Origin: Burkholderia metallica
GTDB lineage: Bacteria; Pseudomonadota; Gammaproteobacteria; Burkholderiales; Burkholderiaceae
Length of the DNA stretch: 64,000 bases
Direction: 5' to 3'
Assembly (NCBI RefSeq): GCF_902832845.1
Contig: NZ_CADFDB010000001.1
Coordinates: 744,001-808,000 of the forward strand
The notes under the pieces were generated by a model. It searched no databases, was not told where the DNA came from, and worked only from the letters and a program-made list of their open reading frames with translations. A program made the translations under genes and the position numbers. Positions 44,031-64,000 of the stretch are shown here, piece after piece (position 1 is the stretch's first letter; each line of letters begins with the position of its first letter).

Positions 44031-45224
44031 GTGCATCGCGACAACGATTCGAACGCACTGGCCGCCACGCTGATCGCCCGCGCCGAGGCGCTCGCGCCGA
44101 CGCTGGCCGCCCGCGCCGCGCAGGCGGAAGCACAGGGCCGCATCCCGGCCGAGACGATCGCCGACATGCAGGCCGCCGGCTTCTTCAAGGTGCTGCAGCC
44201 GAAGCGCTACGGCGGCTACGAGCTCGATCCGCAAGCGTTCTTCGACATCCAGATGGCGCTGGCGCGCGGCTGCATGTCGACCGCGTGGGTGTACGGCGTC
44301 GTCGGCGTGCACAACTGGCAGCTCGCGCTGTTCGATGCGCGCGCGCAGCAGGACGTATGGGGCAACGACCCGGCCACGCTGATCGCGTCGACCTACATGC
44401 CGGTCGGCCGCGTGACGCCGGTCGACGGCGGCTTCCGCCTGTCGGGCCACTGGAAGTTCTCGAGCGGCAGCGAACTGTGCGAATGGGTGTTCCTCGGCGC
44501 GCTGGTGCCGCCGGCCGAAGCCGGCCAGCCGCCCGAATACCGCACCTTCCTGCTGCCGAAATCCGACTACCGGATTCAACAGGACTGGGACGTGCTCGGC
44601 CTGCGCGCGACGGGCAGCCACGACATCGTCGTCGACGACGTGTTCGTGCCCGCATACCGCACGCACAAGGCGATCGACGGGATGATGGGCACGAGCCCGG
44701 GCCTCGCCGTCAACGATGCGCCGCTGTTCAAGCTGCCGTTCGCGCAGATCTTCGTGCGCGCGGTGTGCACGTCGTGCATCGGCGCGCTGCAGGGCGCGCT
44801 CGACGATTTCACCGGCTATGCGGCCACCCGCGTGTCGGCCAACAGCGGCGCGAAGACGACCGACGATCCGGGGGCGCAGAACGCGTGCGCGAACGCGGCC
44901 GTCGCGATCGACGAGATGAAGGTGCTGCTCAAGCGCAATTTCGCGGAACTGATGGCGTCGGTCACCGGCGGTCCGGCCGTGTCGATCGAGCGCCGCGTGC
45001 ATTTCCGCTACCAGTCCGCGCAGGTCGCCGAGCGCTGCGCGCAGGCCGCGAACGCACTGCTGCGCTACGCGGGCGGTAACGGCATCTATCACCGCAATCC
45101 GCTGGTGCGCCGTTTCCTCGACCTGCATGCGGCCCGCGCGCACTACGCGAACAACGTGGATCGTTTCGGCCAGAACCTCGGCGCCGTGATGCTCGGCCGC
45201 GAGAACACCGACTTCTTCATCTGA
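44031..45224 (+). CDS. hsaA: HsaA-like flavin-dependent monooxygenase, oxygenase component
   Basis: A 397-residue protein with the acyl-CoA dehydrogenase fold but of the two-component monooxygenase type (HsaA/HpaH group). The N-terminal GFFKVLQPKRYGGYELDP and the segment VVGVHNWQLALFDARAQ closely recall HsaA, which hydroxylates 3-HSA in ring-A cleavage of steroids using reduced flavin from HsaB. GTG 44031 has AGGAG six bases upstream. It is followed by a KstD-like gene and a flavin reductase gene, its probable partner. Confidence 0.85.
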   Translation: MHRDNDSNALAATLIARAEALAPTLAARAAQAEAQGRIPAETIADMQAAGFFKVLQPKRYGGYELDPQAFFDIQMALARGCMSTAWVYGVVGVHNWQLALFDARAQQDVWGNDPATLIASTYMPVGRVTPVDGGFRLSGHWKFSSGSELCEWVFLGALVPPAEAGQPPEYRTFLLPKSDYRIQQDWDVLGLRATGSHDIVVDDVFVPAYRTHKAIDGMMGTSPGLAVNDAPLFKLPFAQIFVRAVCTSCIGALQGALDDFTGYAATRVSANSGAKTTDDPGAQNACANAAVAIDEMKVLLKRNFAELMASVTGGPAVSIERRVHFRYQSAQVAERCAQAANALLRYAGGNGIYHRNPLVRRFLDLHAARAHYANNVDRFGQNLGAVMLGRENTDFFI

Positions 45225-45234
45225 CGAGGCCGCA

Positions 45235-46995
45235 ATGAACGACCCGCAAGCACAGCAATACGTGTTCGACGTGGTGGTCGTCGGCTCGGGCGCGGGCGCG
45301 CTGCTCGCCGCGTGCCGCGCGGCCGACCACGGCCTGGCCGTCGTCGTGATCGAGAAGACGGCGCTGTACGGCGGCACGTCGGCCGTCTCGGGCGGCGGCA
45401 TCTGGGTGCCGTGCAATCACCATATCGCCGAGCTGGGCGCGACCGATTCGCGCGAGGCCGCGCGCGGCTATATCGAAGCCTGCGTGGCCGGCGAATCGAC
45501 GCCCGAGAAAATCGACACGTATCTCGACCGCGCGCCGGAAATGCTGCGCTACCTGGAATCGAACACGCCCGTGCGTTATCAGGCGCTGCCGAAGTACGCG
45601 GACTATTTCCAGAAGGTGCCGGGCGCGATGCCGGGCTATCGCGCGCTCGATCCGCTGCCGTTCGACGGCGCGCTGCTCGGCGACGAGTTCGACCGGCTGC
45701 GGCCGCCGTCGCCCGGCACGCTGATCGGCGGGCGTGTCGCGGTGACGTCGAAGGAGGCGCATACGCTGTTTTCGCGCGGGCCCGGCTTCATGAAGCTCGC
45801 GCTCGCACAGTTCGGCCGCTACTGGCTCGATATCGGGATGCGCCGCCGCACGCGGCGCGACCGGCGCCTGACGCTCGGCAACGCGCTGATCGGCGGGCTG
45901 CGCCGCGCGCTGCTCGACCGCAACGTGCCCGTGTGGCTCGACACGCCGATGCGCGACCTGCTCGACGACGACGGCCGTGTGACGGGCGTGCGTGCGCAGC
46001 GCTTCGGGCAACGCGTGACGATCGTCGCGCGGCGCGGCGTGATCCTCGGCGCGGGCGGTTTCGAGCGCAACCAGCCGATGCGCGAGCGCCATCTGCCGCA
46101 GCCGACGCAGTCGCAATGGAGCGCGACACCGCCTGCCAACACCGGCGACGCGATCGCCGAAGGCCACCGGCTCGGCGGCGCGCTCGCGCTGATGGAGCAC
46201 GTGTGGGGCGCGCCGACGGTCGGCGTCGCCGGCGAGGAGAAGCAGCGCGCGCTGTTCGTCGAACGCAACCTGCCCGGCTGCGTGATCGTGAACCGCCTCG
46301 GCAAGCGCTTCGTCAACGAAGCCGCGCCGTATTCCGAATTCGTGCCGGCGATGTATCGCGACCATGCGCGTACCGGCGCGAACGTGCCGGCGTGGATGGT
46401 GTTCGACGCGCGGTTTCGCCGCAAGTATCCGTGCGGGCCGATCATGCCGGCGTCGATGATGCCCGATGCGCGGATTCCGGCCGAATTCCGCGACGTGCTC
46501 GTGAAGGCCGACACGGTCGACGCGCTGGCCGCGCGCATCGGCGTCGATGCGGCCGGCCTGCACGATACGCTGCGCGACATGGCGCGCTATGCGGCAACCG
46601 GCGTCGACGAAGCGTTCGGCAAGGGCGACAACCTGTTCGACACGTACTACGGCGATCCGCGCAACGAGCCGAACCCGTGCCTGGGGCCGGTCGACCAGGC
46701 GCCGTTCTACGCGGTGCGGATCGACGCGGGCGACATCGGCACGAAGGGCGGGCTCGTCACCGACGCGCACGCCCGCGTGCTGCGCGCCGACGGCGAGCCG
46801 GTCGACGGGCTCTACGCGATCGGCAACACCAGTGCCTCGATGATGGGCGCGAGCTACCCCGGCGCGGGCTCGACGCTCGGTCCGGCGATGACCTTCGGGT
46901 ATCTCGCCGCCGACCACCTGGCTGCCCGCGCAGCCGACGCCGAAGGCCGCCTCGCCCGGCGATCCACGACTGAACCCGACGGAGTCCGATCATGA
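45235..46995 (+). CDS. KstD-like FAD-dependent 3-ketosteroid dehydrogenase
   Basis: A 586-residue flavoprotein of the fumarate-reductase/KstD family. The FAD-binding start is VVVVGSGAGALLAACRAA; the C-terminal SMMGASYPGAGSTLGPAMTF matches the KstD active-site region, with Tyr541 in the position of the catalytic Tyr. KstD introduces the C1-C2 double bond in 3-ketosteroids; related members are 4-ene dehydrogenases, so the exact bond is unsure. It is 10 bp after the hsaA-like gene and overlaps the reductase gene by 4 bp. Confidence 0.83.
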   Translation: MNDPQAQQYVFDVVVVGSGAGALLAACRAADHGLAVVVIEKTALYGGTSAVSGGGIWVPCNHHIAELGATDSREAARGYIEACVAGESTPEKIDTYLDRAPEMLRYLESNTPVRYQALPKYADYFQKVPGAMPGYRALDPLPFDGALLGDEFDRLRPPSPGTLIGGRVAVTSKEAHTLFSRGPGFMKLALAQFGRYWLDIGMRRRTRRDRRLTLGNALIGGLRRALLDRNVPVWLDTPMRDLLDDDGRVTGVRAQRFGQRVTIVARRGVILGAGGFERNQPMRERHLPQPTQSQWSATPPANTGDAIAEGHRLGGALALMEHVWGAPTVGVAGEEKQRALFVERNLPGCVIVNRLGKRFVNEAAPYSEFVPAMYRDHARTGANVPAWMVFDARFRRKYPCGPIMPASMMPDARIPAEFRDVLVKADTVDALAARIGVDAAGLHDTLRDMARYAATGVDEAFGKGDNLFDTYYGDPRNEPNPCLGPVDQAPFYAVRIDAGDIGTKGGLVTDAHARVLRADGEPVDGLYAIGNTSASMMGASYPGAGSTLGPAMTFGYLAADHLAARAADAEGRLARRSTTEPDGVRS

Positions 46996-47510
46996 GCGAT
47001 CTCACCACCCATCCGCTGCGCACCGACATGCTGCTCGCGATGCGCCGTCTCGCGCGCTCCGTCACGGTCATCAGCAGCGCGCACGACGGCCGGCGCTACT
47101 CGATGTCCGCGACGGCGGTCGATTCGCTGTCGACCGATCCGCCTTCGCTGCTGATCTGCATCAACCGCAGCGCATCGCTGTATCCGCCGCTCGACGCGGG
47201 CGCGGGGTTCTGCGTGAACGTGCTGTCGGCGGCGCACGAAGGCATCGCGATCGACTGCAGCGGCCGCCTGAAGGGCGAAGCGCGCTTCACGACCGGCGAC
47301 TGGCAGGCGTCGGCGCACGGCGTGCCGTATCTGCGCGACGCGCAGGCGAGCCTCGTGTGCGAGCAGGACGGCCGCTTCGAATACGGCACGCATACGGTGT
47401 TCATCGGGCGCATTCGCGAGGTGCTGATGAGCGGCGACGTCGATCCGCTCGTCTATCTCGACGGCGCGTACACGACGCCGGGCGCGCCGGTGAGCCGCGC
47501 GGCCGCGTGA
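46992..47510 (+). CDS. hsaB: HsaB-like flavin reductase
   Basis: A 172-residue flavin reductase (FMN-binding split-barrel). Family marks are LARSVTVISSAHDGRRYSM, SATAVDSLSTDPPSLLICIN, FCVNVLSA and the Gly-His-like HTVFIGRIREV. It should supply reduced flavin to the HsaA-like oxygenase. Its ATG overlaps the KstD-like stop (ATGA at 46992), and the operon order oxygenase / dehydrogenase / reductase supports the pairing. Confidence 0.85.
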   Translation: MSDLTTHPLRTDMLLAMRRLARSVTVISSAHDGRRYSMSATAVDSLSTDPPSLLICINRSASLYPPLDAGAGFCVNVLSAAHEGIAIDCSGRLKGEARFTTGDWQASAHGVPYLRDAQASLVCEQDGRFEYGTHTVFIGRIREVLMSGDVDPLVYLDGAYTTPGAPVSRAAA

Positions 47511-47735: not shown

Positions 47736-48770
47736 ATGAGCGATTCCCGTTTTCACCGGCTGACCGTGGCCGACGTGATCGCAGAAAGCGACGACGCGTG
47801 CTCGTTCGTGTTCGACGTGCCGGCTGCGTTGCGCGACGCGTTCGCGTACCGGCCCGGGCAGTTCCTGACGCTGAACGTGCCGTGCGCGGATGCGAGCGTC
47901 GCGCGCTGCTATTCGCTGTCGAGCGCGCCCGGTATCGACGCCGCGCCGAAGATCACCGTCAAGCGCGTACGCGACGGCCGCGCGTCGAACTGGCTGTGCG
48001 ACCGCGTGAAGGCGGGCGACACGCTCGACGTGCTGCCGCCGGCCGGTGTGTTCACGCCGCGCACGCTGGACGGCGACCTGCTGCTGTTCGCGGGCGGCAG
48101 CGGCATCACGCCGGTGCTGTCGATCCTGAAATCGGCGCTCGTGCACGGTCGCGGGATGCTGACGCTGATCTACGCGAACCGCGACGAGCGTTCGGTGATT
48201 TTCCGCGACGAACTGCAGCAGCTCGCGCACCGTCATCCGGGCCGGCTGCGCGCGATTCACTGGCTCGACAGCGTGCAGGGCATCCCGCAGCAACGCCATC
48301 TCGAGGAACTCGCGCGGCCGTTCAGCAGGCAGGAGACGTTCATCTGCGGGCCCGCGCTGTTCATGGAGAACGCGCTCGCCGCGATGCTCGGCCTCGGGCT
48401 GCCGCGTGCGCGGGTGCACGTCGAGCGGTTTGCGTCGTTGCCCGATGCGCCGGCGCAGGCCGATCCGTCCGCGACGGCAGCCGAGGCCGGCGACGGCGCG
48501 GCGATCGAGACGGTCCTCGACGGCGACGCGTTCGCGTTCGACAGCGCACCCGGCGAAACGCTGCTCGACGCGATGCTGCGCGCGGGCGTGCCGGCGCCGA
48601 ATTCCTGCCGGATGGGGCAGTGCGGCGCATGCATGTGCCGGATCGAGCGTGGTGAAGTCGCGCTCGACAGCAACCACGTGCTCGACGACGACGAGATCGC
48701 GGCCGGCTGGACGCTCGCCTGTTGCGCGCGGCCCGCGAGCGACGCGCTGCGCGTGGTGTTTCCCGACTGA
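47736..48770 (+). CDS. KshB-type ferredoxin-NAD(P)H reductase
   Basis: A 344-residue electron-transfer protein. An FAD domain (RCYSLSSAPG) and an NAD domain (LLLFAGGSGITPVLSIL) precede a C-terminal plant-type [2Fe-2S] domain whose ligands are Cys in SCRMGQCGACMCRI and CC near the end. This is the layout of the reductases for Rieske oxygenases, such as KshB of 3-ketosteroid 9-alpha-hydroxylase. The matching oxygenase (KshA) is not in the window. ATG 47736 follows GAGGAGCGGGCG. Confidence 0.82.
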   Translation: MSDSRFHRLTVADVIAESDDACSFVFDVPAALRDAFAYRPGQFLTLNVPCADASVARCYSLSSAPGIDAAPKITVKRVRDGRASNWLCDRVKAGDTLDVLPPAGVFTPRTLDGDLLLFAGGSGITPVLSILKSALVHGRGMLTLIYANRDERSVIFRDELQQLAHRHPGRLRAIHWLDSVQGIPQQRHLEELARPFSRQETFICGPALFMENALAAMLGLGLPRARVHVERFASLPDAPAQADPSATAAEAGDGAAIETVLDGDAFAFDSAPGETLLDAMLRAGVPAPNSCRMGQCGACMCRIERGEVALDSNHVLDDDEIAAGWTLACCARPASDALRVVFPD

Positions 48771-48809: not shown

Positions 48810-50396
48810 ATGACGATGGACAACGAAATCCTGACCACGCCCGCGCTGATCGCACGGGCAGCCGCGCGCCACGGCGCGCATCCGGCGATCGAGTCGGAAC
48901 ACGGCCGGCTGACCTACGCGGAACTCGATGCGGCGCGCGTCGACGCGGCCCGCGCGCTGCTCGCGAGCGGCATCGACGCGGGCGACCGCATCGCGGTGTG
49001 GGCGCCGAACCTGCCGCAGTGGATCGTCGCGGCGCTGGCGATCCACACCGTCGGCGCGATCCTCGTGCCGGTCAATACGCGAATGAAGGGGATGGAGGTG
49101 GGCGGCATCCTGCACGACGGCGGCGTGCGGCTGCTGTTCTGCTGCGGCACCTTCCTCGGCGAATCCTATCCGGCGATGCTCGCGCCGCACCGGCCCGCGA
49201 CGCTCGAACGCGTGGTCGTGTTCGACGGCGAGCCGCCCGCCGGCGCGTGCGACGAGACCTGGAACGCGTTCCTCGCGCGCGGCGCCGCGGTGCCGCTGGC
49301 GGCGGTGCGGGTACGCGAGGCGCAGGTCACGCCCGACACCGTGATGGACCTGATGTTCACGTCCGGCACGACGGGCCGCCCGAAAGGCGTGATGACCGCG
49401 CACGGCCAGAACCTGCGCGCCGCGCAGGCGTGGGCGGCGATCGCCGGCGTGCGCGCCGACGACCGCTACCTGATCGTCAATCCGTTCTTCCACACGTTCG
49501 GCTACAAGGCCGGCTGGCTCGCGGCGCTGTCGAGCGGCGCGACCGTGCTGCCGCATCTCGTGTTCCAGCCGGCCGACGTGCTGCGGCGCGTGGCCGACGA
49601 TCGCGTGTCGGTGCTGCCCGGGCCGCCGACGCTGTACTACGCGCTGCTCGACGCACCCGATCGCGCGCGGCACGACCTGTCGTCGTTGCGGATCGCGGTG
49701 ACGGGGGCGGCTGCGATCGCGCCGAGCCTGATCGAGCGGATGCGCGCGGAGCTCGGCTTCGAGACGGTGCTGACCGGCTACGGGCTGACCGAGTCGTGCG
49801 GTTTCGCGACGCTGTGCCGGCAGGGCGACGATGCCGAGACGGTCGCCTGTACGTCCGGCCGGCCGATGCCGGACGTCGAGCTGCGCATCGCGGGGCCGGG
49901 CGGCGCGCCGCTCGGGCCGGACGAGACCGGCGAGATCTGGGTGCGCGGCTACAACGTGATGCGCGGCTACTTCAACCAGCCGGACGCGACGCGCGAGACC
50001 GTCGATGCCGACGGCTGGCTGCATACGGGGGATCTCGGCTGCGTCGATGCGAACGGTAACCTGAAGATCACCGACCGCATCAAGGACATGTTCATCGTCG
50101 GCGGCTTCAACTGTTATCCGGCCGAGATCGAACGGCTGCTCGCCGCGCATCCGTCGATCGCGCAGGTGGCGCTGGTCGGCGTGCCCGATCCGCGGCTGGG
50201 CGAAGTCGGGCACGCGTATGTCGTGCTGCGGCCGGGCGCGCATGCCGACGCGGACGAACTGAACGACTGGGCGCGCCGCAACATGGCGAACTACAAGGTG
50301 CCGCGCTATTTCACGTTCGTCGAGCAGCTGCCGACGAGCGCCGCCGGCAAGGTGCTGAAGTACCGCCTGCGGGCGCAGACCGAGGCGGCGGCCTGA
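48810..50396 (+). CDS. fadD3: FadD3-like acyl-CoA synthetase
   Basis: A 528-residue AMP-forming acyl-CoA ligase. The ATP/AMP motif LMFTSGTTGRPKGVM is near residue 180, with VNPFFHTFGYKAGWLAALS and GPPTLYYALLDAP after it and the hinge ITDRIKDMFIVGGFN and C-terminal Lys in AAGKVLKYRL. These segments closely resemble FadD3, which activates the steroid C/D-ring intermediate HIP. Two in-frame ATGs (48810, 48816) are possible. It follows the ferredoxin reductase and precedes an SDR gene. Confidence 0.83.
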   Translation: MTMDNEILTTPALIARAAARHGAHPAIESEHGRLTYAELDAARVDAARALLASGIDAGDRIAVWAPNLPQWIVAALAIHTVGAILVPVNTRMKGMEVGGILHDGGVRLLFCCGTFLGESYPAMLAPHRPATLERVVVFDGEPPAGACDETWNAFLARGAAVPLAAVRVREAQVTPDTVMDLMFTSGTTGRPKGVMTAHGQNLRAAQAWAAIAGVRADDRYLIVNPFFHTFGYKAGWLAALSSGATVLPHLVFQPADVLRRVADDRVSVLPGPPTLYYALLDAPDRARHDLSSLRIAVTGAAAIAPSLIERMRAELGFETVLTGYGLTESCGFATLCRQGDDAETVACTSGRPMPDVELRIAGPGGAPLGPDETGEIWVRGYNVMRGYFNQPDATRETVDADGWLHTGDLGCVDANGNLKITDRIKDMFIVGGFNCYPAEIERLLAAHPSIAQVALVGVPDPRLGEVGHAYVVLRPGAHADADELNDWARRNMANYKVPRYFTFVEQLPTSAAGKVLKYRLRAQTEAAA

Positions 50397-54299: not shown

Positions 54300-54363
54300 G
54301 AACCCAGCTTTACCCGAAGAGACTCAATCCCTCGCGCAGCCCGACGAGACGAGCGACATCACG

Positions 54364-56289: not shown

Positions 56290-56372
56290 GCGACGTCGAA
56301 GGGGGCGATGGATAGGCCGCAAGTCGACTGGAAGACGGTCGAGGGTAAGTGCTTGATTCTCACGGCGGCAAG

Positions 56373-56870
56373 ATGGACACTCCAGCAAGTGTTTTTTCGC
56401 CGAAATGTGCCTCTAACCAATTGAAAGCAAAAGAAAACGCGTCGAATCGTCAAGCCTATCTGATTGATACGAACGTCATCAGCGAAATCAGGAAGGGCAA
56501 GCGAACCAACCGCGGCGTGCGGGCATTCTTCAAGCAAGCAGCGGCCGACGCGAGCCCGCTTTACCTGTCCGTCGTAACGGTTGCTGAACTTCGCCGCGGC
56601 GTCGACCTGATCCGTCATCGCGGCGATACGCGCCAGGCGTCGATGCTCGAGGCCTGGATGGCGACCATCCTGTCCGGCTATGCGCCGAACATCCTGCCGG
56701 TCGACATCGAGATCAGCCAGATGTGGGGGCATTTGCGCGTGCCCGATCCGACCCACGAACTCGACAAACTGATCGCGGCCACCGCGCTGATCAACGATCT
56801 CACGGTCGTCACGCGCAACGTCGACGATTTCGCCCGTACCGGCGTCAGGCTGCTGAACCCGTTCGACTGA
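56373..56870 (+). CDS. FitB/VapC-type PIN-domain toxin with replaced N-terminus
   Basis: A 165-residue protein containing a complete PIN ribonuclease domain from YLIDTNVIS (residue 29) to LLNPFD. Acidic catalytic residues are in LIDTN, VAELRRGV, HELDKLIAAT and RNVDDF. Normal family members start at VYLIDTN; here a foreign-looking 28-residue leader (MDTPASVFSPKCASNQ...) precedes it and the usual GTG is lost. No antitoxin gene lies directly upstream; a FitA-like antitoxin is at 53996. The start is uncertain (GTG 56349 or ATG 56373), and it may not be expressed. Confidence 0.78.
   Translation: MDTPASVFSPKCASNQLKAKENASNRQAYLIDTNVISEIRKGKRTNRGVRAFFKQAAADASPLYLSVVTVAELRRGVDLIRHRGDTRQASMLEAWMATILSGYAPNILPVDIEISQMWGHLRVPDPTHELDKLIAATALINDLTVVTRNVDDFARTGVRLLNPFD
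56457..56467. repeat. Right junction copy, TATCTGATTGA
   Basis: Matches TATTTGATTGA at 54222-54232 in 10 of 11 bases; it marks where the toxin frame resumes. Confidence 0.6.
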
Positions 56871-57069: not shown

Positions 57070-57966
57070 ATGATCGATGTCCGTGCGCTTGGCTATGTCG
57101 TCGTCGAGGCGACGCGCGTCGATGCGTGGCGCCGCTACGCGGAAGACGTGCTGGGCATGCAGGCGCTCGACGCGCCCGACGGCGCGCTGTACCTGAAGAT
57201 GGACGAGCGCGATTTCCGCTACGTGATCGTCCCCGGCTCGACCGACCGCTATTTCGCGTCGGGCTGGGAACTGCCCGATGGTGCCGCGTTCGACGCCGCG
57301 CTCGCGGCGCTGCAGCGTGCGGGCGTCGAGCCGGCGCGCGCGAGTCGCGACGAAGCCGCGCTGCGCCGCGTGCAGGCGATGGCGTGGTGCACCGACCCGT
57401 CCGGCAACCGCCACGAGCTGTACTGGGGCGCGCGCTGCGACTTCCGCCGCTTCGTGTCGCCGCTGGGCGTCGCGCGCTTCGTCACCGGCGACATGGGGCT
57501 CGGCCACGCGGTGCTGCCCGCGCCGCAGTTCGATGCGACCGACGCGTTCGTGCGCGGCGTGCTCGGCTTCGAGCTGTCCGACATCTATCGCGTGAAGTTC
57601 ACGCCCGATCCGGCCGAACCCGAGAAACGCATCCATTTCATGCACTGCCGCAACGCGCGCCATCACAGTCTCGCGTTGTTCGAGATGGCCGTGCCGTCGG
57701 GCTGCGTGCATGTGATGGCCGAAGTCGACTCGATGGACGAAGTCGGCCGCGCGCTCGACCGGGTCGCCGCGCACGACGTGAAGATGTCCGCGACGCTCGG
57801 CCGGCACTGCAACGACCAGATGATTTCGTTCTACATGAAGACCCCCGGCGGCTTCGATCTCGAATACGGCTTCGGCGGCCTCACGGTCGACTGGTCGAAA
57901 CATGCGGTGTTCGAGGCCACGAAGGTGAGCCAGTGGGGCCACGATTTCAGCATCGGATACCGGTAA
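57070..57966 (+). CDS. hsaC: HsaC/TesB-like extradiol ring-cleavage dioxygenase
   Basis: A 298-residue two-domain type I extradiol dioxygenase. The iron ligands are His146 (GLGHAVLP), His199 (RHHSLAL) and Glu265 (DLEYGFGG), matching the BphC family. The segments YMKTPGGFD and SATLGRHCNDQMISFY, and the C-terminal SQWGHDFSIG, closely recall HsaC, which cleaves the catechol-like A ring of 3,4-DHSA in steroid degradation. AGGAGGAGG precedes the ATG. It starts the second half of the cluster. Confidence 0.87.
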   Translation: MIDVRALGYVVVEATRVDAWRRYAEDVLGMQALDAPDGALYLKMDERDFRYVIVPGSTDRYFASGWELPDGAAFDAALAALQRAGVEPARASRDEAALRRVQAMAWCTDPSGNRHELYWGARCDFRRFVSPLGVARFVTGDMGLGHAVLPAPQFDATDAFVRGVLGFELSDIYRVKFTPDPAEPEKRIHFMHCRNARHHSLALFEMAVPSGCVHVMAEVDSMDEVGRALDRVAAHDVKMSATLGRHCNDQMISFYMKTPGGFDLEYGFGGLTVDWSKHAVFEATKVSQWGHDFSIGYR

Positions 57967-57975
57967 GCCAGCACG

Positions 57976-58869
57976 ATGACGATGAAACCTCTCGACAAGA
58001 CGATGTCCGCGCGCGACGTGGTCGCGCAACTCGCCGACGGCATGACGATCGGCATCGGCGGATGGGGGCCGCGGCGCAAGCCGATGGCGCTGGTGCGCGA
58101 AATCGCGCGCTCCGACCTGAAAGACCTGACGGTCGTCGCGTACGGCGGCGCCGACGTCGGCCTGCTGTGCGCGGCGGGCAAGGTGCGCAAGGTGGTGTTC
58201 GGCTTCGTGTCGCTCGACGTGATCCCGCTCGAACCGCATTTCCGGCGCGCGCGCGCGCAGGGCCGCGTCGACGTGCTCGAACTCGACGAAGGGATGCTGC
58301 AGCTCGGCCTGCGCGCGGCCGCCGCGCGGCTGCCGTTCCTGCCGACGCGCGCCGGGCTCGGCACCGCGCTGCTCGATCACGCACCGCAACTGCGCACCGT
58401 GCAGTCGCCGTACGACGACGGCGAAACGCTGCTCGCGATGCCCGCGCTCGAACTCGACGTCGCGCTGCTGCACGTGAACGCAGCCGACCGGATGGGCAAC
58501 ACGCGCATCGACGGCCCCGATCCGTTCTTCGACGCGTGGATGGCGCGCGCCGCGCAGCGCTGCTACGTGTCGGCGGAAAAGGTCGACGCATCGATCGCGA
58601 CCGAAGACCTCGACGCCGCGAAACGCAACCCGTTCGAGCGCTCGCTCGTCACGGGCGTCGTGCACGCGCCGGGCGGCGCGCACCCGACGTCGTGCGGGCC
58701 GGCCTACGGCTGGGACCTGCCGCACCTGCGCGCGTACTGCGCGAGCGCGGAGGACGACGCGAAGACGGCGGCCTACCTGCGCGACGTGGTCGGCCAGGAC
58801 GAACGTCAGTACCTCGAAGGCGTCGGCGGCCTGTCGCATGTGACGACGCTGCCGTTGCCGATTCTGTAA
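57976..58869 (+). CDS. ipdA: IpdA-like CoA-transferase/hydrolase alpha subunit
   Basis: A 297-residue class I CoA-transferase-fold alpha subunit. The start DGMTIGIGGWGPRRKPMALV and the segments VAYGGADVGLLCAAGKV, FGFVSLDV and LPFLPTRAGLG closely resemble IpdA, which with IpdB hydrolyses the last carbocyclic ring of steroids (COCHEA-CoA). It lies 9 bp after the dioxygenase and 10 bp before the beta subunit gene. ATG 57976 or 57982 can serve as start. Confidence 0.85.
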   Translation: MTMKPLDKTMSARDVVAQLADGMTIGIGGWGPRRKPMALVREIARSDLKDLTVVAYGGADVGLLCAAGKVRKVVFGFVSLDVIPLEPHFRRARAQGRVDVLELDEGMLQLGLRAAAARLPFLPTRAGLGTALLDHAPQLRTVQSPYDDGETLLAMPALELDVALLHVNAADRMGNTRIDGPDPFFDAWMARAAQRCYVSAEKVDASIATEDLDAAKRNPFERSLVTGVVHAPGGAHPTSCGPAYGWDLPHLRAYCASAEDDAKTAAYLRDVVGQDERQYLEGVGGLSHVTTLPLPIL

Positions 58870-58879: not shown

Positions 58880-59677
58880 GTGAGCGAATCTCTTGACCAT
58901 TCCCTCGCGGAACTGATGATCGTCGCGTCCGCGCGACTCTGGCGCGACGACGGCGAAGTGCTGGCGACCGGCATCGGCACGGGCCCGCGGCTCGCGGCCG
59001 GCCTCGCACGGCTCGCCTACAACAACGGACTGCTGTTGACCGACGGCGAAGCGTATCTCGTCGAGGAGCCGGTGCCGCTCGGCCCGCGCCCCGACGGCTA
59101 TCGCGTGAAGGCGAGCGGCTGGATGACCTACGAGCGCGTGTTCGACTGCCTGTGGCACGGCCGCCGTCATGCGCTCGTGATGCCGACGCAGATCGACCGT
59201 TTCGGCCAGGCCAACATCTCGTGGCTCGGCGACGACTACGCGCGCCCGAAAACCCAGCTGCTTGGCGCGCGCGGCTTCCCCGGCAACACGACGAACCACG
59301 CGAACTCGTTCTTCGTCAGCGGCCACGGCAAGCGCACGTTCGTCGCGGGTGAAGTCGACATGGTGTGCACGGTCGGCTACAACCCGGTGCGCCGGCTGCC
59401 GGGGATGAAGACCTTCGTCGACCTGCGCAGCATCGTCACCGATCTGTGCGTGATGGATTTCGGCGGCCCCGACCACGCGATCCGCGTGCGCTCGCTGCAT
59501 CCGGGCGTGAGCTTCGACGAGGTACAGGACGCGACCGGTTTTCCGCTGATCGCCGCGCCGGACCTCGGCACGACGGCCGCGCCGGACGCGGAAGACCTGC
59601 GCATCGTGCGTGCGCTCGACCCTCACAACCTGCGCGCGACGATCGTGCGCAACAATCCGGCGCCGCGCCGCGGATGA
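58880..59677 (+). CDS. ipdB: IpdB-like CoA-transferase/hydrolase beta subunit
   Basis: A 265-residue beta subunit of the IpdAB type. It contains ELMIVASARLWRDDGEVLATGIG, LTDGEAYLVEEP, MPTQIDRFGQANISWLGDDY and MVCTVGYNPVRRLPGMKTF, as expected for this family. It should pair with the adjacent alpha subunit to open the final steroid ring. GTG 58880 is fixed by AAGGAG six bases upstream. The enoyl-CoA hydratase gene starts 8 bp after its stop. Confidence 0.86.
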   Translation: MSESLDHSLAELMIVASARLWRDDGEVLATGIGTGPRLAAGLARLAYNNGLLLTDGEAYLVEEPVPLGPRPDGYRVKASGWMTYERVFDCLWHGRRHALVMPTQIDRFGQANISWLGDDYARPKTQLLGARGFPGNTTNHANSFFVSGHGKRTFVAGEVDMVCTVGYNPVRRLPGMKTFVDLRSIVTDLCVMDFGGPDHAIRVRSLHPGVSFDEVQDATGFPLIAAPDLGTTAAPDAEDLRIVRALDPHNLRATIVRNNPAPRRG

Positions 59678-59685: not shown

Positions 59686-60612
59686 ATGGAAGCGACCCAG
59701 GTGACCTTCGGCGACGGTGTCGTCGACTACGCGGTCGAAGGCGGCATCGCGACGATCACGATGAACCGTCCCGAGTATCACAACGCGCAGAACTCGAAGA
59801 TGACGTATGCGCTCGACGCGGCGTTCCGGCGCGCGGCGCACGACGACGCGGTGAAGGCGATCGTGCTCGCGGGCGCCGGCAAGCATTTCTCGGCGGGTCA
59901 CGACATCGGCACGCCGGGCCGCGACATCCACGAGTCGTTCGACCGCGCGTCGCTGTGGTACGACCACGTCGACAAGGAAGGCGGCGAATTCCTGTATGCG
60001 CGCGAGCAGGAGGTGTACCTCGGGATGTGCCGGCGCTGGCGCGACCTGCCGAAGCCGACGATCGCGATGGTGCACGGCGCGTGCATCGCAGGCGGGCTAA
60101 TGCTCGCGTGGGTGTGCGACCTGATCGTCGCGTCGGAGGATGCGTTCTTCGCCGATCCGGTCGTGCGGATGGGCATTCCGGGCGTCGAGTATTTCGCGCA
60201 TGCGTACGAGCTGAACCCGCGCATCGCGAAGGAGTTCCTGTTTCTCGGCGAACGGATGCCGGCCGAGCGGGCGTACCAGATGGGGATGGTCAACCGCGTG
60301 GTGCCGCGCGAACGGCTGCGCGACGCGACCTACGCGATCGCCGCGAAGATCGCGACGATGCCGCGCCTCGGACTCACGCTGACCAAGCAGGCGCTGAATC
60401 ACGTCGAGGAACTGCAAGGCAAGCGCGCGGCGATGGACGCGGCGTTCGCATGGCATCACTTCGCGCATGCGCACAACGAGCTGGTGAGCGGCGATCGTCT
60501 GGGCGGCTACGACGCGCGCAGCATGGCCAGTTCGCAGCGTCAGCCGAACGGCGCGGAGCGAAGCGACACGCAAGCGCCGGCGCCGGTCGCCGTCAACGGA
60601 GCCGCCGCATGA
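59686..60612 (+). CDS. Enoyl-CoA hydratase/isomerase family protein
   Basis: A 308-residue crotonase. The CoA-binding oxyanion motif is AGAGKHFSAGHDIG and ACIAGGLMLAWVCDL; the C-terminus (last 30 residues) is Gln/Ala-rich and non-conserved. It probably hydrates an enoyl-CoA in the ring-derived pathway, perhaps side-chain or HIP intermediates. ATG 59686 is chosen over ATG 59674 because GAGG lies six bases before it. Its stop overlaps the next ATG (60609). Confidence 0.85.
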   Translation: MEATQVTFGDGVVDYAVEGGIATITMNRPEYHNAQNSKMTYALDAAFRRAAHDDAVKAIVLAGAGKHFSAGHDIGTPGRDIHESFDRASLWYDHVDKEGGEFLYAREQEVYLGMCRRWRDLPKPTIAMVHGACIAGGLMLAWVCDLIVASEDAFFADPVVRMGIPGVEYFAHAYELNPRIAKEFLFLGERMPAERAYQMGMVNRVVPRERLRDATYAIAAKIATMPRLGLTLTKQALNHVEELQGKRAAMDAAFAWHHFAHAHNELVSGDRLGGYDARSMASSQRQPNGAERSDTQAPAPVAVNGAAA

Positions 60613-61697
60613 GCACGACGCTGCATACGCCGTTGTGCGACCTGCTCGGCTGCCGCTATCCGATCGTACAGACCGCGATGGGCTGGGTGGCCGATGCACG
60701 GCTCGTCGCGGCCACGAGCAACGCGGGCGGCTTCGGCTTCCTGGCCGGCGCGACGCTGGACCCGGAGCAGGTCGAAGCCGAGATCCTGAAAGTGAAGTCG
60801 CTGACGGATCAACCGTTCGGCATCAACTTCCACATGTTCCAGAAGAACGCGCAGCAGGTCGTCGAGCTGGCGATCAGGCACCGGCTGCGCGCGGTGAGCT
60901 ACGGCCGCGGGCCCGATGCGAAGACGATCCGCCGCTTCAAGGACGCCGGCATCGTCTGCATGCCGACCGTCGGCGCGCCGAAGCACGCGGCGAAGGCGGT
61001 CGAGCTCGGCGCGGACATCGTGACGGTGCAGGGCGCGGAAGGCGGCGGCCACACGGGCGCGGTGCCGACCACGCTGCTGCTGCCGAAGGTACTCGACGCG
61101 GTGCAGGTGCCGGTGGTCGCGGCAGGCGGCTTCTTCGACGGGCGCGGGCTGGCCGCCGCGCTCGCGTACGGCGCGGCCGGCATCGCGATGGGGACGCGCT
61201 TCCTGATGAGCGCCGAATCGCCGGTGCCGCGCGCGACGCTCGATCGCTATGTGGCCGTGGGCGACCCGGCACGCATCCGCGTGTCGGATGCGCTCGACGG
61301 GCTGCCGCAACGGATGATCGACAACCCGTATCTGCTGAAGCTCGAACGCTTCGGCCCGCTGCGCCGCACGTGGTTCGCGCTGAAAACCGCCGAAGCGTGG
61401 CGGCGCCGGAACGGCCTGAGCACGGCCGACATGCTGGGCCTCGCGCTCAGGGCGCTGCGCTCGCACGACTACACGGCCAGCCAGACGCTGATGGCCGCGA
61501 ACGCGCCGTTCCTGATCCAGCGCGCGATCGTCGAGGGGCGTCCGGACGAAGGCGTGCTGCCGAGCGGCCAGGCGGCCGCGATGATCGGCGCGATCGAATC
61601 GTGCGACGCGCTGATTGCGCGCATCGTCGCGCAAGCCGGCGAGCGGCTCGACGCGCTGGCCGCGCTGCGCGGCGCGCCGGCCGCCGAGGCCGCGTGA
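60609..61697 (+). CDS. ipdC: IpdC-like nitronate-monooxygenase-fold oxidoreductase
   Basis: A 362-residue FMN-dependent TIM-barrel enzyme. The N-terminal LGCRYPIVQTAMGWVADARL, the motif QGAEGGGHTGAVPTTLLLP, and AAGGFFDGRGLAAALAYGAA match IpdC closely; IpdC acts on HIP-CoA-derived double bonds in mycobacteria. The long C-terminal part (from about 230) is also shared. It overlaps the preceding hydratase gene by 4 bp and lies between it and an echA20-like gene. Confidence 0.86.
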   Translation: MSTTLHTPLCDLLGCRYPIVQTAMGWVADARLVAATSNAGGFGFLAGATLDPEQVEAEILKVKSLTDQPFGINFHMFQKNAQQVVELAIRHRLRAVSYGRGPDAKTIRRFKDAGIVCMPTVGAPKHAAKAVELGADIVTVQGAEGGGHTGAVPTTLLLPKVLDAVQVPVVAAGGFFDGRGLAAALAYGAAGIAMGTRFLMSAESPVPRATLDRYVAVGDPARIRVSDALDGLPQRMIDNPYLLKLERFGPLRRTWFALKTAEAWRRRNGLSTADMLGLALRALRSHDYTASQTLMAANAPFLIQRAIVEGRPDEGVLPSGQAAAMIGAIESCDALIARIVAQAGERLDALAALRGAPAAEAA

Positions 61698-61722: not shown

Positions 61723-62532
61723 ATGACAGCAACCCACCAACCGGCCGGCGCGATGCCGTTCCGGATCGATCGCGCAGACGGCATCGCCGAACTGGTGATC
61801 GCCCATCCGCCCGTGAACGCGCTCGACGCGCAGGGCTGGCACGCGCTTGCTCGCGCGCTCGACGCGCTCGGCGAGGACGACGACGTGCGGGTGATCGTCG
61901 TGCGCGGCGAGGGCCGCGGCTTCTGCGCGGGCGTCGACATCAAGGAGCTGGCCGCGCATCCGGAGCGGATCGTGTCGGTCAACGCAGGCAACTACGAGAC
62001 GTTCCGCGCGGTGCACCGCAACCCGAAGCCCGTAATCGCGGCCGTACACGGCTTCGTGCTCGGCGGCGGGATCGGCATCTGCGGCGCGGCGGACATCGTC
62101 GTCGCGGCCGACTGCGCGCGCTTCGGCGTGCCCGAGATCGATCGCGGCGCGATGGGCGGCGGCGCGCATCTGCAACGGCTGTTCGGCGTGCAGAAGGTGC
62201 GCACGATGTATTTCACCGGCGACATGATCGACGCGGCCGAAGCGTACCGGCTCGGCGCGCTTGAGCAGGTCGTGACGCGCGACGCGCTGCGCGACGCGGC
62301 GCTCGCGATCGCCCGCCGGATCGCGGAGAAGAGCCCGGCGATGGTGCGGCTCGCGAAGGAGGCGCTGAACGGCGTCGAAGACGGCGATCTCGAGGACAAG
62401 TACCGCTGGGAGCAGGGCTTCACGCTGCAGGCGTACATGACGAACGATTCGACCGAAGCGCGCGCCGCGTTCGTCGAAAAGCGCGACGCGCGCTTCGATG
62501 CGCAGGCCGCTGCCGGGGAGGCCCGCGCATGA
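61723..62532 (+). CDS. echA20: EchA20-like crotonase
   Basis: A 269-residue crotonase. Key parts are HPPVNALDAQGWHALARAL, RGEGRGFCAGVDIKEL, GFVLGGGIGICGAADIVVAA, EIDRGAMGGGAHLQRLF and EQGFTLQ, closely recalling EchA20, which opens the D ring in HIEC-CoA. GGGAGG lies eight bases upstream of ATG 61723. The stop overlaps the ATG of the following acyl-CoA dehydrogenase. It is distinct from the hydratase at 59686. Confidence 0.86.
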   Translation: MTATHQPAGAMPFRIDRADGIAELVIAHPPVNALDAQGWHALARALDALGEDDDVRVIVVRGEGRGFCAGVDIKELAAHPERIVSVNAGNYETFRAVHRNPKPVIAAVHGFVLGGGIGICGAADIVVAADCARFGVPEIDRGAMGGGAHLQRLFGVQKVRTMYFTGDMIDAAEAYRLGALEQVVTRDALRDAALAIARRIAEKSPAMVRLAKEALNGVEDGDLEDKYRWEQGFTLQAYMTNDSTEARAAFVEKRDARFDAQAAAGEARA

Positions 62533-63698
62533 ACCTGACCTATACGCCGCAACAGCAGGCGTTTCGCGCGGAGATCCGCGAATGGCTCGCCGCGCACGTG
62601 CCGCGCGAGCGGCTGCCGAGCTTCGACACCGAGGAAGGCTTCGCCGCCCACCGCGACTGGGAGCGCACGCTGCACTCGGGCCGCTGGAGCATGGTCACGT
62701 GGCCGCGCGAACTCGGCGGGCGCGGCTGCGACCTGATCGAGTGGCTGATCTTCGAGGAAGAGTACTGGCGCGCGGACGCGCCGATGCGCGTGAACCAGAA
62801 CGGCATCTTCCTGCTCGGCCCGACGCTGATGGATTTCGGTACCGCGGAGCAGAAGGCGCGCTTCCTGCCCGCGATGGCGGCCGGCGAGCACGTGTGGGCG
62901 CAGGGCTGGTCGGAGCCGAACGCGGGTTCGGACATGGCCGCGATCCGCACGACGGCGGCCCGTATCGGCGACGAATACGTGCTGAACGGCCAGAAGATCT
63001 GGTCGACGCGCGCGGTGTGGGCGGACTGGCTCTTCGGCCTGTTCCGCAGCGATCCCGACTCGTCGCGCCACCACGGGCTCACGTTCCTGATGGTGCCTCT
63101 GTCCGCGCCGGGCATCACGGTGCGGCCGATCCGGCAGTTGAACGGGCAGACCGGCTTCGCGGAAATCTTCTTCGACGACGTGCGCGTGCCGGTCGGCAAC
63201 CGGCTCGCGGCCGAAGGCGCGGGCTGGCAGGTCGCGATGGCGACGGCCGGTTTCGAGCGCGGGCTGATGCTGCGTTCGCCGGCACGGTTCCAGCGCACCG
63301 CGCAGGCGCTGCGCGACCTGTATCTCGCGCACCGCGACAGCGCGGACCGCGACCCGACGCTGCGCGAGCGCGTGGTGCAGGCGTGGATGGATGCGCAGGC
63401 GTATGCGCTGTCGACGTATGCGACCGCGAGCCGGCTGCTGAAGGGCGGCCATATCGGCGCGGAGTCGAGCACCAACAAGGTGTTCTGGTCGGAACTCGAT
63501 CTGCGCATGCACCAGACCGCGCTCGACATCCTCGGCGCGCACGGCGAGGTCGTTCCGCAGACGGCCGCGCAGCACGCGACGCTCGGCCACTGGCTCGACG
63601 GCTTCCTGTTCGCGCAGGCCGGCACGATCTACGCGGGCACCAACGAGATCCAGCGCAACATCGTCGCCGAACGGATGCTCGGCATGCCGCGCGCGTAA
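62529..63698 (+). CDS. Acyl-CoA dehydrogenase, FadE30-like
   Basis: A 389-residue acyl-CoA dehydrogenase. Conserved segments are YSEP-like GWSEPNAGSDMAAIRT, LNGQKIWSTRAVWADW, and the C-terminal IYAGTNEIQRNIVAERMLG; the N-terminal AEIREWLAAHVP and WPRELGGRG fit the FadE30 type, linked to HIP-CoA oxidation. Such enzymes often work as heteromers with a second subunit, encoded next. The first ATG overlaps the echA20-like stop. Confidence 0.84.
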   Translation: MNLTYTPQQQAFRAEIREWLAAHVPRERLPSFDTEEGFAAHRDWERTLHSGRWSMVTWPRELGGRGCDLIEWLIFEEEYWRADAPMRVNQNGIFLLGPTLMDFGTAEQKARFLPAMAAGEHVWAQGWSEPNAGSDMAAIRTTAARIGDEYVLNGQKIWSTRAVWADWLFGLFRSDPDSSRHHGLTFLMVPLSAPGITVRPIRQLNGQTGFAEIFFDDVRVPVGNRLAAEGAGWQVAMATAGFERGLMLRSPARFQRTAQALRDLYLAHRDSADRDPTLRERVVQAWMDAQAYALSTYATASRLLKGGHIGAESSTNKVFWSELDLRMHQTALDILGAHGEVVPQTAAQHATLGHWLDGFLFAQAGTIYAGTNEIQRNIVAERMLGMPRA

Positions 63699-63734
63699 CG
63701 GCGCCGGCGCCCCCCCTCACTGAACGGACATCGT

Positions 63735-64000
63735 ATGGATTTCGTATTCGATGAAGACCAGGAAGCGCTCGCGGACAGCGTGAAGCGCCTGCTGATGACC
63801 GAGATGACGCCCGAGCTGATCCGCGAGCTGTGGGCCACGCCGACCGGGCGCTCGGACGACCTGTGGGCGCTGTTCGCGTCGCAGGGGCTGACCGCCGTGT
63901 CGGTGCCCGACACGCACGGCGGCGTCGGCCTGACCGAAGCGGAATGGGCGCTGCTCGCGCAGACCTACGGCTATTTCGGCAGCCCCGAGCCGCTGCTCGA
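63735..64000 (+). CDS. Acyl-CoA dehydrogenase, N-terminal fragment
   Basis: The first 88 residues of a second acyl-CoA dehydrogenase that runs past the window end. It starts MDFVFDEDQEALADSVKRLL and has the N-terminal helical domain with VPDTHGGVGLTEAEWALLA. Position directly after the FadE30-like gene suggests a heteromeric partner of the steroid type. The C-terminal catalytic part is not available. Confidence 0.8.
   Translation, partial: MDFVFDEDQEALADSVKRLLMTEMTPELIRELWATPTGRSDDLWALFASQGLTAVSVPDTHGGVGLTEAEWALLAQTYGYFGSPEPLL

What the first reader, a model, noticed from the sequence alone, without database searches (positions are those of the whole stretch)
44031..64000. Candidate steroid-ring (androstane/HIP) catabolic cluster in a Burkholderia-like genome
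The sequence shows, in one direction, proteins resembling HsaA, KstD, HsaB, KshB-type reductase, FadD3, HsaC, IpdA, IpdB, IpdC, EchA20 and a FadE30-type dehydrogenase. In Mycobacterium and Comamonas these names mark rings A/B cleavage and C/D-ring (HIP) degradation of steroids. Several signature stretches match remembered family sequence closely (HsaC iron ligands, IpdA GWGPRRKPMA, FadD3 VNPFFHTFGYKAG). KshA and HsaD are not in the window, so completeness and the true substrate (steroid, bile acid or another terpenoid) are unknown.
Basis: partly seen in the sequence, partly recalled or inferred. Interest (0 to 1): 0.75.

Follow-up and report, generated by a model that had tools for sequence, protein, structure and literature searches.

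The report
Steroid-degradation gene cluster in Burkholderia
This stretch of a Burkholderia chromosome carries most of the genes for breaking down steroid hormones, a pathway already predicted for this genus; less expected is that a small toxin-antitoxin pair in its middle serves as a landing site for bacterial viruses and can stay behind when the pathway is lost.

Summary
Window 44031-63698 encodes, on one strand, intact HsaA, KstD, HsaB-like, KshB-like, FadD3, HsaC, IpdA, IpdB, IpdC and EchA20 homologues. The two missing enzymes lie downstream in the same genome: KshA at C1:819516-820595 (three best PDB hits are KshA) and an HsaD candidate at C1:830959-831795. From ipdA on, enzyme classes follow the published Comamonas C/D-ring gene order; by that order the window's 'FadE30' is FadE31. 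No side-chain genes were identified in the cluster, so C19 steroids (testosterone type) are the likely substrate. Such clusters were predicted in Burkholderia in 2016 (PMC4810484): the finding is ordinary. Not found in my literature searches: a 5.87-kb island with a FitAB-like toxin-antitoxin pair splits the cluster; the antitoxin-toxin overlap is a prophage attachment site (elements of 24, 53 and 55 kb in three relatives; a 2.2-kb remnant here). IpdA orthologues occur in 35 of 65 genus genomes. In nine cluster-less genomes picked for having the toxin gene, the pair sits at this same locus; four of ten cluster-less loci read keep broken hsaC. So loss explains at least part of the patchiness.

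The parts
42713..43867 (+). Luciferase-like (LLM) flavoprotein, first gene upstream of hsaA; role unknown
   Evidence: LLM-class families, best TIGR03619 123 bits, below its 167-bit cut-off. Seen upstream of HsaA in L033, L049 and L066 of the 80 loci searched; the other fetched stretches show no LLM match, many because they end at or short of this point.
44031..45224 (+). HsaA/TesA2-type 3-HSA monooxygenase oxygenase
   Evidence: NF045629 395.9 bits (cut-off 450); best PDB hits 2rfq, 3afe; best HsaA match in genome (396 bits, next 155).
45235..46995 (+). KstD, 3-ketosteroid delta1-dehydrogenase
   Evidence: 7p18 649 bits; PRK07843 3-oxosteroid 1-dehydrogenase 588 bits (cut-off 788).
46992..47510 (+). 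Flavin reductase at the HsaB place
   Evidence: RutF 107 bits, HsaB model 67 bits (cut-off 230); overlaps kstD by 4 bp.
47736..48770 (+). KshB-like FAD/2Fe-2S reductase
   Evidence: best PaaE 252 bits (cut-off 421); 2Fe-2S ferredoxin-type cysteine pattern (pattern recalled).
48810..50396 (+). FadD3/ScdA, HIP-CoA synthetase
   Evidence: NF005801 824 bits over cut-off 657.
50429..51202 (+). SDR oxidoreductase following fadD3
   Evidence: SDR families only, none over cut-off among those shown. Full-length in 15 of the 20 Burkholderia loci; not beside fadD3 in the 13 Paraburkholderia-like loci.
51257..52165 (-). Putative lipoprotein, island gene
   Evidence: no Pfam match; low GC.
52963..53625 (+). 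Putative outer-membrane protein, island gene
   Evidence: no Pfam match; the name is from reading the ORF; same ORF cluster in the window and in 15 of the 20 Burkholderia loci.
53996..54232 (+). FitA-like ribbon-helix-helix antitoxin; its stop codon lies in the left attachment core
   Evidence: PF22513, 61 bits, cut-off 27.
54222..54232 (+). Left attachment core (antitoxin stop / native toxin start)
54233..56456 (.). 2.2-kb remnant between the attachment cores, without integrase
   Evidence: Its first ~105 and last ~110 bp lie 24, 53 and 55 kb apart in G008, G051 and G009; no integrase of this subfamily in this genome.
54364..54750 (-). HTH antitoxin of a second toxin-antitoxin pair, inside the remnant
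   Evidence: PF01381 46 bits.
54747..54983 (-). RelE/ParE-type toxin of the second pair
   Evidence: PF05016 40 bits.
55426..56289 (+). FkbM-type methyltransferase, inside the remnant
   Evidence: PF05050 70 bits.
56373..56870 (+). PIN-domain toxin (FitB-like); its start region is supplied by the inserted element
   Evidence: PF01850 43.5 bits; same in-frame extension in L101 and L104, and a 173-aa open frame also in G009. The first possible start is a GTG at 56349.
56457..56467 (+). Right attachment core (10 of 11 bases as in the left core)
57070..57966 (+). HsaC/TesB extradiol dioxygenase
   Evidence: best PDB hit 2zi8 251 bits (next 180); NF045631 312 bits (cut-off 450), first of 3 families; extradiol signature (pattern recalled).
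57976..58869 (+). IpdA/ScdL1, COCHEA-CoA hydrolase alpha subunit
   Evidence: 6co6 260 bits, next family (1poi) 94.
58880..59677 (+). IpdB/ScdL2, COCHEA-CoA hydrolase beta subunit
   Evidence: 6con 183 bits, 6co6 177, next family 47; no NCBIfam match.
59686..60612 (+). Crotonase at the ScdN place
   Evidence: NF006140 468 bits (cut-off 280); order.
60609..61697 (+). IpdC/ScdK, FabK-like flavin enzyme
   Evidence: FabK family first; FabK is also the characterised best hit of IpdC in PMC5380842 Table 1.
61723..62532 (+). Crotonase at the EchA20/ScdY place
   Evidence: NF005925 387 bits (cut-off 260); order; no chain named EchA20 among the 20 PDB hits.
62529..63698 (+).
   Evidence: acyl-CoA dehydrogenase families, none over cut-off; CNB-2 numbers in PMC5380842 Table 1.
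63735..64000 (+). Acyl-CoA dehydrogenase at the FadE32/ScdM2 place; continues to C1:808802
   Evidence: PF00441, PF02771.

Best explanation
[quoted passage not shown] Inferred route: KstD and KshAB open ring B and give the phenol 3-HSA; HsaAB hydroxylates it; HsaC cuts ring A; HsaD releases HIP and 2-hydroxyhexa-2,4-dienoate, which HsaEFG degrade. FadD3 makes HIP-CoA, which the acyl-CoA dehydrogenases, SDRs, MaoC hydratase, IpdC, EchA20-type crotonase, IpdAB and thiolases degrade by opening rings D and C. Shown here: gene content, order, open frames, family membership of the key enzymes and their conservation as a unit across species. Inferred: every reaction and the substrate. The cluster was probably present at this locus before several cluster-less species lost it. 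A FitAB-like toxin-antitoxin pair sits between its two arms, and the antitoxin-toxin overlap is the attachment site of a prophage family, of which this window holds a remnant.
For: Family and PDB sequence hits. KshA and an HsaD candidate in the same genome. Enzyme classes of 14 successive genes from IpdA to the second thiolase agree with the TA441 scd list and the CNB-2 gene numbers. IpdA and KshA co-occur: 35 genomes with both, 1 with KshA only, 29 with neither, of 65; their spacing is 17,517-17,909 bp in 35 of 35. No bile-acid CoA synthetase over cut-off in the genome and one OB_ChsH2_C match, on another contig. Published: Burkholderia predicted and lacking most cholate side-chain genes; Cupriavidus necator grew on testosterone but not cholate (PMC4810484, passages). 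Prophage site. Loss scars.
Against: HsaA, KstD, HsaB, HsaC and HsaD all score below the curated NCBIfam cut-offs. HsaD's best PDB hit is BphD. HsaB and KshB are assigned by place, not by best hit. No regulator was identified: no TetR match within the fetched 204 kb, but only 150 of 258 candidates were scored, and other regulator types were not searched. A 5.87-kb island separates the two arms. No growth, expression or enzyme data. Loss was read in 10 of 30 cluster-less genomes, 9 of them picked for having the toxin gene; 6 of the 10 show no clear hsaC remnant, so prior absence is not excluded for them. The prophage site rests on three genomes, and right-end-like pieces also occur in G054 and G026, which lack the cluster.
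Confidence: 0.88

Rival explanations
1. The cluster serves bile acids or sterols with a side chain, not only C19 steroids.
For: The same ring enzymes serve cholate in C. testosteroni (PMC13101464, passages). Genes elsewhere in the genome could shorten a side chain: 31 matches to the CasG model exist, the best 299 bits, and one OB_ChsH2_C domain exists.
Against: None of the CasG matches passes the 750-bit cut-off, and 12 of 14 control genomes also ring (none over the cut-off). The one OB_ChsH2_C match is on contig C2, away from the cluster, and 5 of 14 controls pass that cut-off. The published survey found that all Burkholderia with the pathway lacked most cholate side-chain genes (PMC4810484).
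Confidence: 0.1
2. It is an aromatic-compound or terpenoid meta-cleavage cluster that only resembles steroid genes.
For: HsaD's best PDB hit is BphD; the flavin reductase and the KshB-like reductase score best with RutF and PaaE models.
Against: KshA, KstD, HsaA, HsaC, IpdA and IpdB hit steroid enzymes first (three of these identities recalled) and the 14-gene C/D-ring order matches Comamonas.
Confidence: 0.03
3. The steroid genes are intact but the pathway is poorly expressed or silent in this strain, because the island separates the hsaA-fadD3 arm from hsaC onward.
For: 5,867 bp with genes on both strands lie between the arms; in 12 of 13 Paraburkholderia-like loci fadD3 and hsaC are only 104-164 bp apart.
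Against: All 19 Burkholderia loci in which it could be measured (of 20) have a gap of 1.6-8.0 kb, yet steroid-gene matches there run at 80-100% identity (matches over at least 40% of the query), so the split arrangement is widespread.
Confidence: 0.12

Closest known systems
Comamonas testosteroni TA441/CNB-2 tes-scd steroid cluster (PMC13101464: abstract and passages seen; PMC5380842: abstract and passages with Table 1 seen; PMC6895838: passages seen)
   Same: [quoted passage not shown] CNB-2 gene numbers agree where given.
   Different: CNB-2 numbers 1284-1285 have no counterpart here (48 bp between thiolase and SDR). The side-chain block chsE1E2H1H2ltp2, steABCD and TesR were not identified here; of these only the ChsH2 domain was searched by model.
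Burkholderia and Cupriavidus steroid pathways predicted by Bergstrand et al. 2016 (PMC4810484, passages seen) and Holert et al. 2018, which lists B. cepacia GG4 among its KshA/HsaC references (PMC5790920, passages seen)
   Same: Same genus or family; testosterone-type, without most cholate side-chain genes.
   Different: The passages I saw do not mention the toxin-antitoxin island, the prophage site or the loss scars.
Mycobacterium tuberculosis / Rhodococcus KstR and KstR2 regulons
   Same: HsaA, HsaC, KshA, KstD, FadD3, IpdABC, EchA20, FadE30-33 and FadA6 counterparts (partly by place only).
   Different: No KstR/KstR2-type TetR gene seen nearby (not all candidates scored); cholesterol side-chain and Mce4 genes were not identified in the cluster and not searched for by model.
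FitAB/VapBC-family type II toxin-antitoxin pairs
   Same: RHH antitoxin (PF22513) followed by an overlapping PIN toxin (PF01850) in relatives.
   Different: In this window the pair is separated by 2.2 kb and the toxin has an element-supplied start region.
Prophages with a lambda-type integrase
   Same: Integrase with PF00589 and PF09003 next to the left end; terminase, portal, tail and endolysin genes.
   Different: Attachment core lies in a toxin-antitoxin overlap; the nearest named-phage integrases listed are about 34% identical.

Membership tests
[quoted passage not shown]
   KstD (7p18, 649 bits), though below the NCBIfam cut-off; KshA (4qdf/4qdc/2zyl first, next hit 70 bits); Rieske and iron-ligand patterns (patterns recalled).
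[quoted passage not shown]
   Right domain type and place, but best model is PaaE, below cut-off.
[quoted passage not shown]
   Best PDB and best NCBIfam hits, though below NCBIfam cut-offs.
[quoted passage not shown]
   RutF model scores above HsaB.
[quoted passage not shown]
   NCBIfam HsaD first (199 against BphD 183); PDB BphD first (172 against 152); best HsaD match in the genome.
[quoted passage not shown]
   FadD3 over cut-off; IpdA, IpdB.
[quoted passage not shown]
   Order by enzyme class against PMC13101464 and PMC5380842; the class of ScdJ was not read.
[quoted passage not shown]
   Needs culture.
Cholate-type pathway (side-chain degradation) | Steroid-24-oyl-CoA synthetase and ChsH2-type OB protein in the cluster | tested here: not met
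   No CasG match over cut-off; the only OB_ChsH2_C match is on another contig.
FitAB/VapBC toxin-antitoxin | RHH antitoxin plus PIN toxin, adjacent | tested here: met
   for both domains; adjacent in 16 of 20 Burkholderia loci, separated by the insert in the window.
FitAB/VapBC toxin-antitoxin | Toxin activity blocked by the antitoxin | not tested
   No bench work.
Site-specific integrated prophage (G008, G009, G051) | Integrase at one end, phage genes, matching ends, unoccupied site in relatives | tested here: met
   Ten phage-looking proteins were tested; whether each element is a complete phage was not. The right core of G009 was aligned but not found by the pattern search.
Site-specific integrated prophage (the window's 2.2-kb insert) | Integrase present | tested here: not met
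   0 matches in G000 at E 1e-50: at most a remnant.

The most novel reading that the evidence does not exclude
In Burkholderia the steroid pathway is an old chromosomal trait being eroded from both sides of a toxin-antitoxin pair at its centre: the pair outlives the pathway and at the same time serves as the docking site of a prophage family, which splits the cluster and re-supplies the toxin's start region. Patchy steroid degradation in this genus would then reflect repeated loss around an addiction module more than repeated horizontal gain.
Probability: 0.5. Interest if true: 0.5.

Novelty: new member of a known kind. Interest (0 to 1): 0.35.

Why it matters
The cluster itself supports, with a nearly full gene set, what was predicted for the genus and corrects two points (the FadE30 label, and the missing KshA and HsaD). 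The side results matter more: they suggest that the patchy spread of steroid degradation in Burkholderia owes something to deletion, with readable scars, and they show a toxin-antitoxin overlap used as a prophage attachment site inside a catabolic cluster, so lysogeny changes the layout of a degradative pathway.

Tried and rejected
Rejected: an aromatic or terpenoid cluster (most best hits and the gene order speak against it; HsaD does not). Rejected: a genome without KshA and HsaD (both found). Rejected as first choice: a bile-acid or sterol pathway. Rejected: the FadE30 label for 62529-63698. Considered: the SDR at 50429-51202 as the recently named 9-alpha-hydrogenase ScdB of TA441 (PMC13101464, abstract and passages); not tested, because no ScdB sequence was at hand, and it is missing beside fadD3 in the 13 Paraburkholderia-like loci. 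Considered: the insert as a plain transposon; set aside because its two ends bound large phage-gene-bearing elements elsewhere. Not pursued: structure prediction, plasmid and E. coli searches, promoter scans, Rfam.

Literature searches on the side results: 'prophage', 'steroid degradation gene cluster', 'integrase' (1 paper, PMC3630121, read by passages, unrelated); 'Burkholderia', 'steroid', 'toxin-antitoxin', 'catabolic gene cluster' (none); at least four of 'prophage', 'attB', 'toxin-antitoxin', 'FitAB', 'integration site' (49 papers, 10 listed; one, PMC7371117, read by passages: fitAB there is cargo of an integrative element, not its site; the other nine seen as listing only, 39 not seen). 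The library holds open-licence papers only, so this is no proof of absence. A search for 'scdM1' with 'FadE32' found none.

Weak points: the toxin-gene tree rests on 402 bp (30 sequences, L108 dropped as partial, loci without a hit absent) and holds one genome twice (L027 and L104 share contig length and place). The 65 genus genomes and the 20 named loci overlap. The Paraburkholderia-like group of 13 (L035-L047) includes L045, labelled Burkholderia sp. Ax-1719, at 82% identity. The search for related loci kept 80 of 214 confirmed loci. The ends of the large elements were matched over about 105 and 110 bp. In one search, 26 of 65 genomes matched some part of the insert; most of these are pieces of the methyltransferase or of the second toxin-antitoxin pair elsewhere, or short scraps. 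The nine toxin-bearing cluster-less loci were chosen among the 15 by higher toxin similarity.
Full report
WHERE IT IS. The window is C1:744001-808000 of a 7.55-Mb genome in 37 contigs, 100% complete; the window is 68% GC. IpdA matches in named records put it in Burkholderia, cepacia-complex type: loci L016-L034 and L064 are Burkholderia records at 91-97% identity. I fetched 140 kb of flanks and two overlapping stretches.

THE GENES. On the + strand from 42713: an LLM flavoprotein, HsaA, KstD, an HsaB-like reductase, a KshB-like reductase, FadD3 and an SDR; then 5,867 bp; then HsaC, IpdA, IpdB, a crotonase, IpdC, a second crotonase, an acyl-CoA dehydrogenase, and from 63735 a second dehydrogenase, a thiolase, an SDR, two dehydrogenases, an SDR, a MaoC hydratase, a thiolase, a YCF48-type protein, an RND transporter and KshA (coordinates; domains; the start of the fourth dehydrogenase was not settled). 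Spacing inside each arm is -4 to 225 bp. On the - strand at C1:824029-826772 lie genes at the HsaF, HsaG and HsaE places; the aldolase and hydratase pass their NCBIfam cut-offs, the dehydrogenase was only read as an ORF. Two ORFs at C1:826889-829877, which I take from memory for DUF1329 and DUF1302 proteins, were not scanned. HsaD is on the + strand at C1:830959-831795.

HOW SURE EACH NAME IS. Against the PDB: HsaA hits 2rfq, 3afe and 2or0 first; HsaC hits 2zi8 with 251 bits against 180 for the next; IpdA hits 6co6 with 260 bits against 94 for the next family; KshA hits three KshA sequences at 375-395 bits against 70; KstD hits 7p18 with 649 bits; IpdB hits 6con with 183 bits against 47 for the next family. 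That 2zi8 is HsaC and that 6co6 and 6con are IpdAB is recalled. FadD3 has no chain named FadD3 among the 9 PDB hits listed but passes the curated FadD3 model (824 bits, cut-off 657). Against these names: HsaA, KstD, HsaB, HsaC and HsaD do not reach the curated NCBIfam cut-offs; HsaD's best PDB hit is BphD, 172 bits against 152; the HsaB-like and KshB-like proteins score best with RutF and PaaE models; EchA20 and IpdC find only general family members in the PDB; IpdB has no NCBIfam match.

GENE ORDER. The Fig. [quoted passage not shown] the text gives ScdD as MaoC-type, ScdY and ScdN as crotonases and ScdG as an SDR. A legend in PMC6895838 gives scdC1C2 as acyl-CoA dehydrogenase, scdE as dehydrogenase and scdF as CoA acetyl transferase. 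Table 1 of PMC5380842 numbers the CNB-2 genes ipdA 1276, ipdB 1277, ipdC 1279, echA20 1280, fadE31 1281, fadE32 1282, fadA6 1283, an SDR 1286, fadE33 1287, fadE30 1288, ipdF 1289. The 14 genes from IpdA to the second thiolase here follow this order by class; CNB-2 1284-1285 have no counterpart, and the class of ScdJ was not read, so the last place is by position only. It follows that the dehydrogenase at 62529 is the FadE31 counterpart and FadE30's counterpart is the fourth dehydrogenase, ending at C1:813321.

SUBSTRATE. PMC4810484 (passages) reports that all Burkholderia, Ralstonia and Cupriavidus with the pathway lacked most cholate side-chain genes, and that C. necator grew on testosterone and not on cholate or cholesterol. 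In this genome no CasG match passes the cut-off (31 matches, best 299 of 750 bits; 12 of 14 controls also ring) and the one OB_ChsH2_C domain is on another contig (5 of 14 controls pass). C19 steroids are therefore the best guess; no activity was measured.

REGULATOR. A genome search for TetR_N found 48 matches, none in C1:684001-888000, but 150 of 258 first-look candidates were scored. A LysR-type ORF at about window 41212-42081 (by reading) lies next to an opposite-strand MFS gene and need not belong to the cluster.

CONSERVATION. Of 65 genus genomes, 35 have an IpdA match of 88% identity or more (all 65 'match' at E 0.001 because of other CoA transferases) and 36 have a KshA match of 85% or more. 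All 35 have both, G024 (480 contigs) has KshA only, 29 have neither; the distance between the two genes is 17,517-17,909 bp in 35 of 35. Eleven genomes have further KshA-like genes at 37-61% identity.

THE ISLAND. Between the SDR and hsaC, GC of 500-bp windows is 0.51-0.67 against 0.64-0.74 around it. The island encodes a putative lipoprotein and outer-membrane protein (no Pfam match), a FitA-like antitoxin, an HTH/RelE pair, an FkbM methyltransferase and a PIN toxin. In 16 of 20 Burkholderia loci the FitA-like antitoxin and PIN toxin are adjacent and essentially full-length; L019 and L020 lack both, L021 has fragments, L027 has the toxin only. The fadD3-hsaC distance is 1.6-8.0 kb in 19 of these 20 (not measurable in L027) but 104-164 bp in 12 of 13 Paraburkholderia-like loci (L041: 3.7 kb). 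In Cupriavidus loci it is also long where measurable (1.7-8.9 kb), so a long gap as such is not peculiar to Burkholderia.

THE ATTACHMENT SITE. In the window the antitoxin and toxin are separated by 2,224 bp, with an 11-bp core at both ends (10 of 11 bases alike). A genus-wide search with the insert found its two ends far apart in three cluster-bearing genomes: about 24 kb in G008, 53 kb in G051, 55 kb in G009. Each has, just inside the left end, a 359-360-residue integrase with lambda-type arm-binding and catalytic domains. Ten phage-looking proteins of these elements were scanned in pieces and all ten hit phage families: terminase, portal, tail sheath, tape measure and baseplate in G051, a different terminase and tape measure in G009, tail fibre, endolysin and anti-repressor in G008; completeness was not tested. 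This integrase subfamily (92% identity or more) occurs in 3 of 65 genomes, each time at this site; a fourth, partial 54% match with a stop lies elsewhere in G034. G000 has none, so the window's insert is at most a remnant. G018 has the left end and a toxin missing its first part. Right-end-like pieces also occur in G054 and G026, which lack the cluster. At the right end the element supplies an in-frame start region to the toxin: the open frame is 173 residues in the window, L101 and L104 and also in G009, against 159-160 in many genomes with an uninterrupted pair.

LOSS SCARS. A toxin orthologue is present in 46 of 65 genomes at E 1e-30: 31 of 35 with IpdA, 15 of 30 without. I read 9 of those 15 loci, chosen for higher similarity, plus G059. 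In 9 of 9 the pair is followed, within 0.2-5.5 kb, by the cold-shock gene that follows kshA here (C1:820735), and no full-length steroid gene of the two arms was matched between; the upstream MFS gene (C1:783664) is near in 6 of 9 and outside the fetched stretch or absent in 3. Broken genes remain in 4 of the 10: the hsaC 5' part fused to the kshA 3' end in G002 and G059, at different points; hsaC, a thiolase scrap and the kshA end in G026; an hsaC scrap and the region after kshA in G036 (HsaC residues 1-138 in G026 and 1-226 in G059; 75 residues in G002). Of the other six, G039 has an 83-bp scrap of the RND gene, G041 a weak 95-bp match upstream of hsaC, G025 the last bases of kshA, and G010, G054 and G062 nothing; for these six prior absence is not excluded. 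On a 402-bp toxin-gene tree the cluster-less loci fall in several places: L111 inside a clade of otherwise cluster-bearing loci (support 0.98), and L113, L116 and L117 with L022 (0.92). Together this supports more than one independent loss; a full count was not made. Six toxin-positive and fourteen toxin-negative cluster-less genomes were not read.

VERDICT. What was not found in the library searches is the toxin-antitoxin pair between its arms, its use as a prophage site, and the deletion scars.

Noticed in passing
window 53996-56870: FitA-like antitoxin and PIN toxin separated by a 2.2-kb prophage-end remnant; the overlap of the pair is a prophage attachment site in G008, G009 and G051.
   Followed up: yes
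L110-L119 (cluster-less Burkholderia genomes): Scars at the same locus, four of ten with broken hsaC and kshA-region remnants; the toxin-antitoxin pair is kept in the nine loci that were chosen for having it.
   Followed up: partly
window 42713-43867: LLM flavoprotein directly upstream of hsaA, also in Ralstonia loci L049 and L066 at 75% identity; role in the pathway unknown.
   Followed up: no
window 50429-51202: SDR directly after fadD3, full-length in 15 of 20 Burkholderia loci; an untested candidate for the 9-keto reductase step (ScdB).
   Followed up: partly
C1:815953-819448 (L098:9953-13448): YCF48-type and RND transporter genes between the second thiolase and kshA; possible steroid transport.
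   Followed up: no
C1:684001-888000: No TetR-type regulator match in or near the cluster (nearest on C1 at 502600 and 953573; not all candidates scored); regulation unexplained.
   Followed up: partly
G005, G009, G012, G019, G029, G032, G051, G053, G055, G056, G058: Additional KshA-like genes, 37-61% identical, in 11 of 65 genus genomes.
   Followed up: no
window 54364-54983: Second toxin-antitoxin pair (HTH and RelE/ParE type) inside the remnant; 86-90% similar DNA in G036, G038 and G060 and 78% in G015, away from this site.
   Followed up: no
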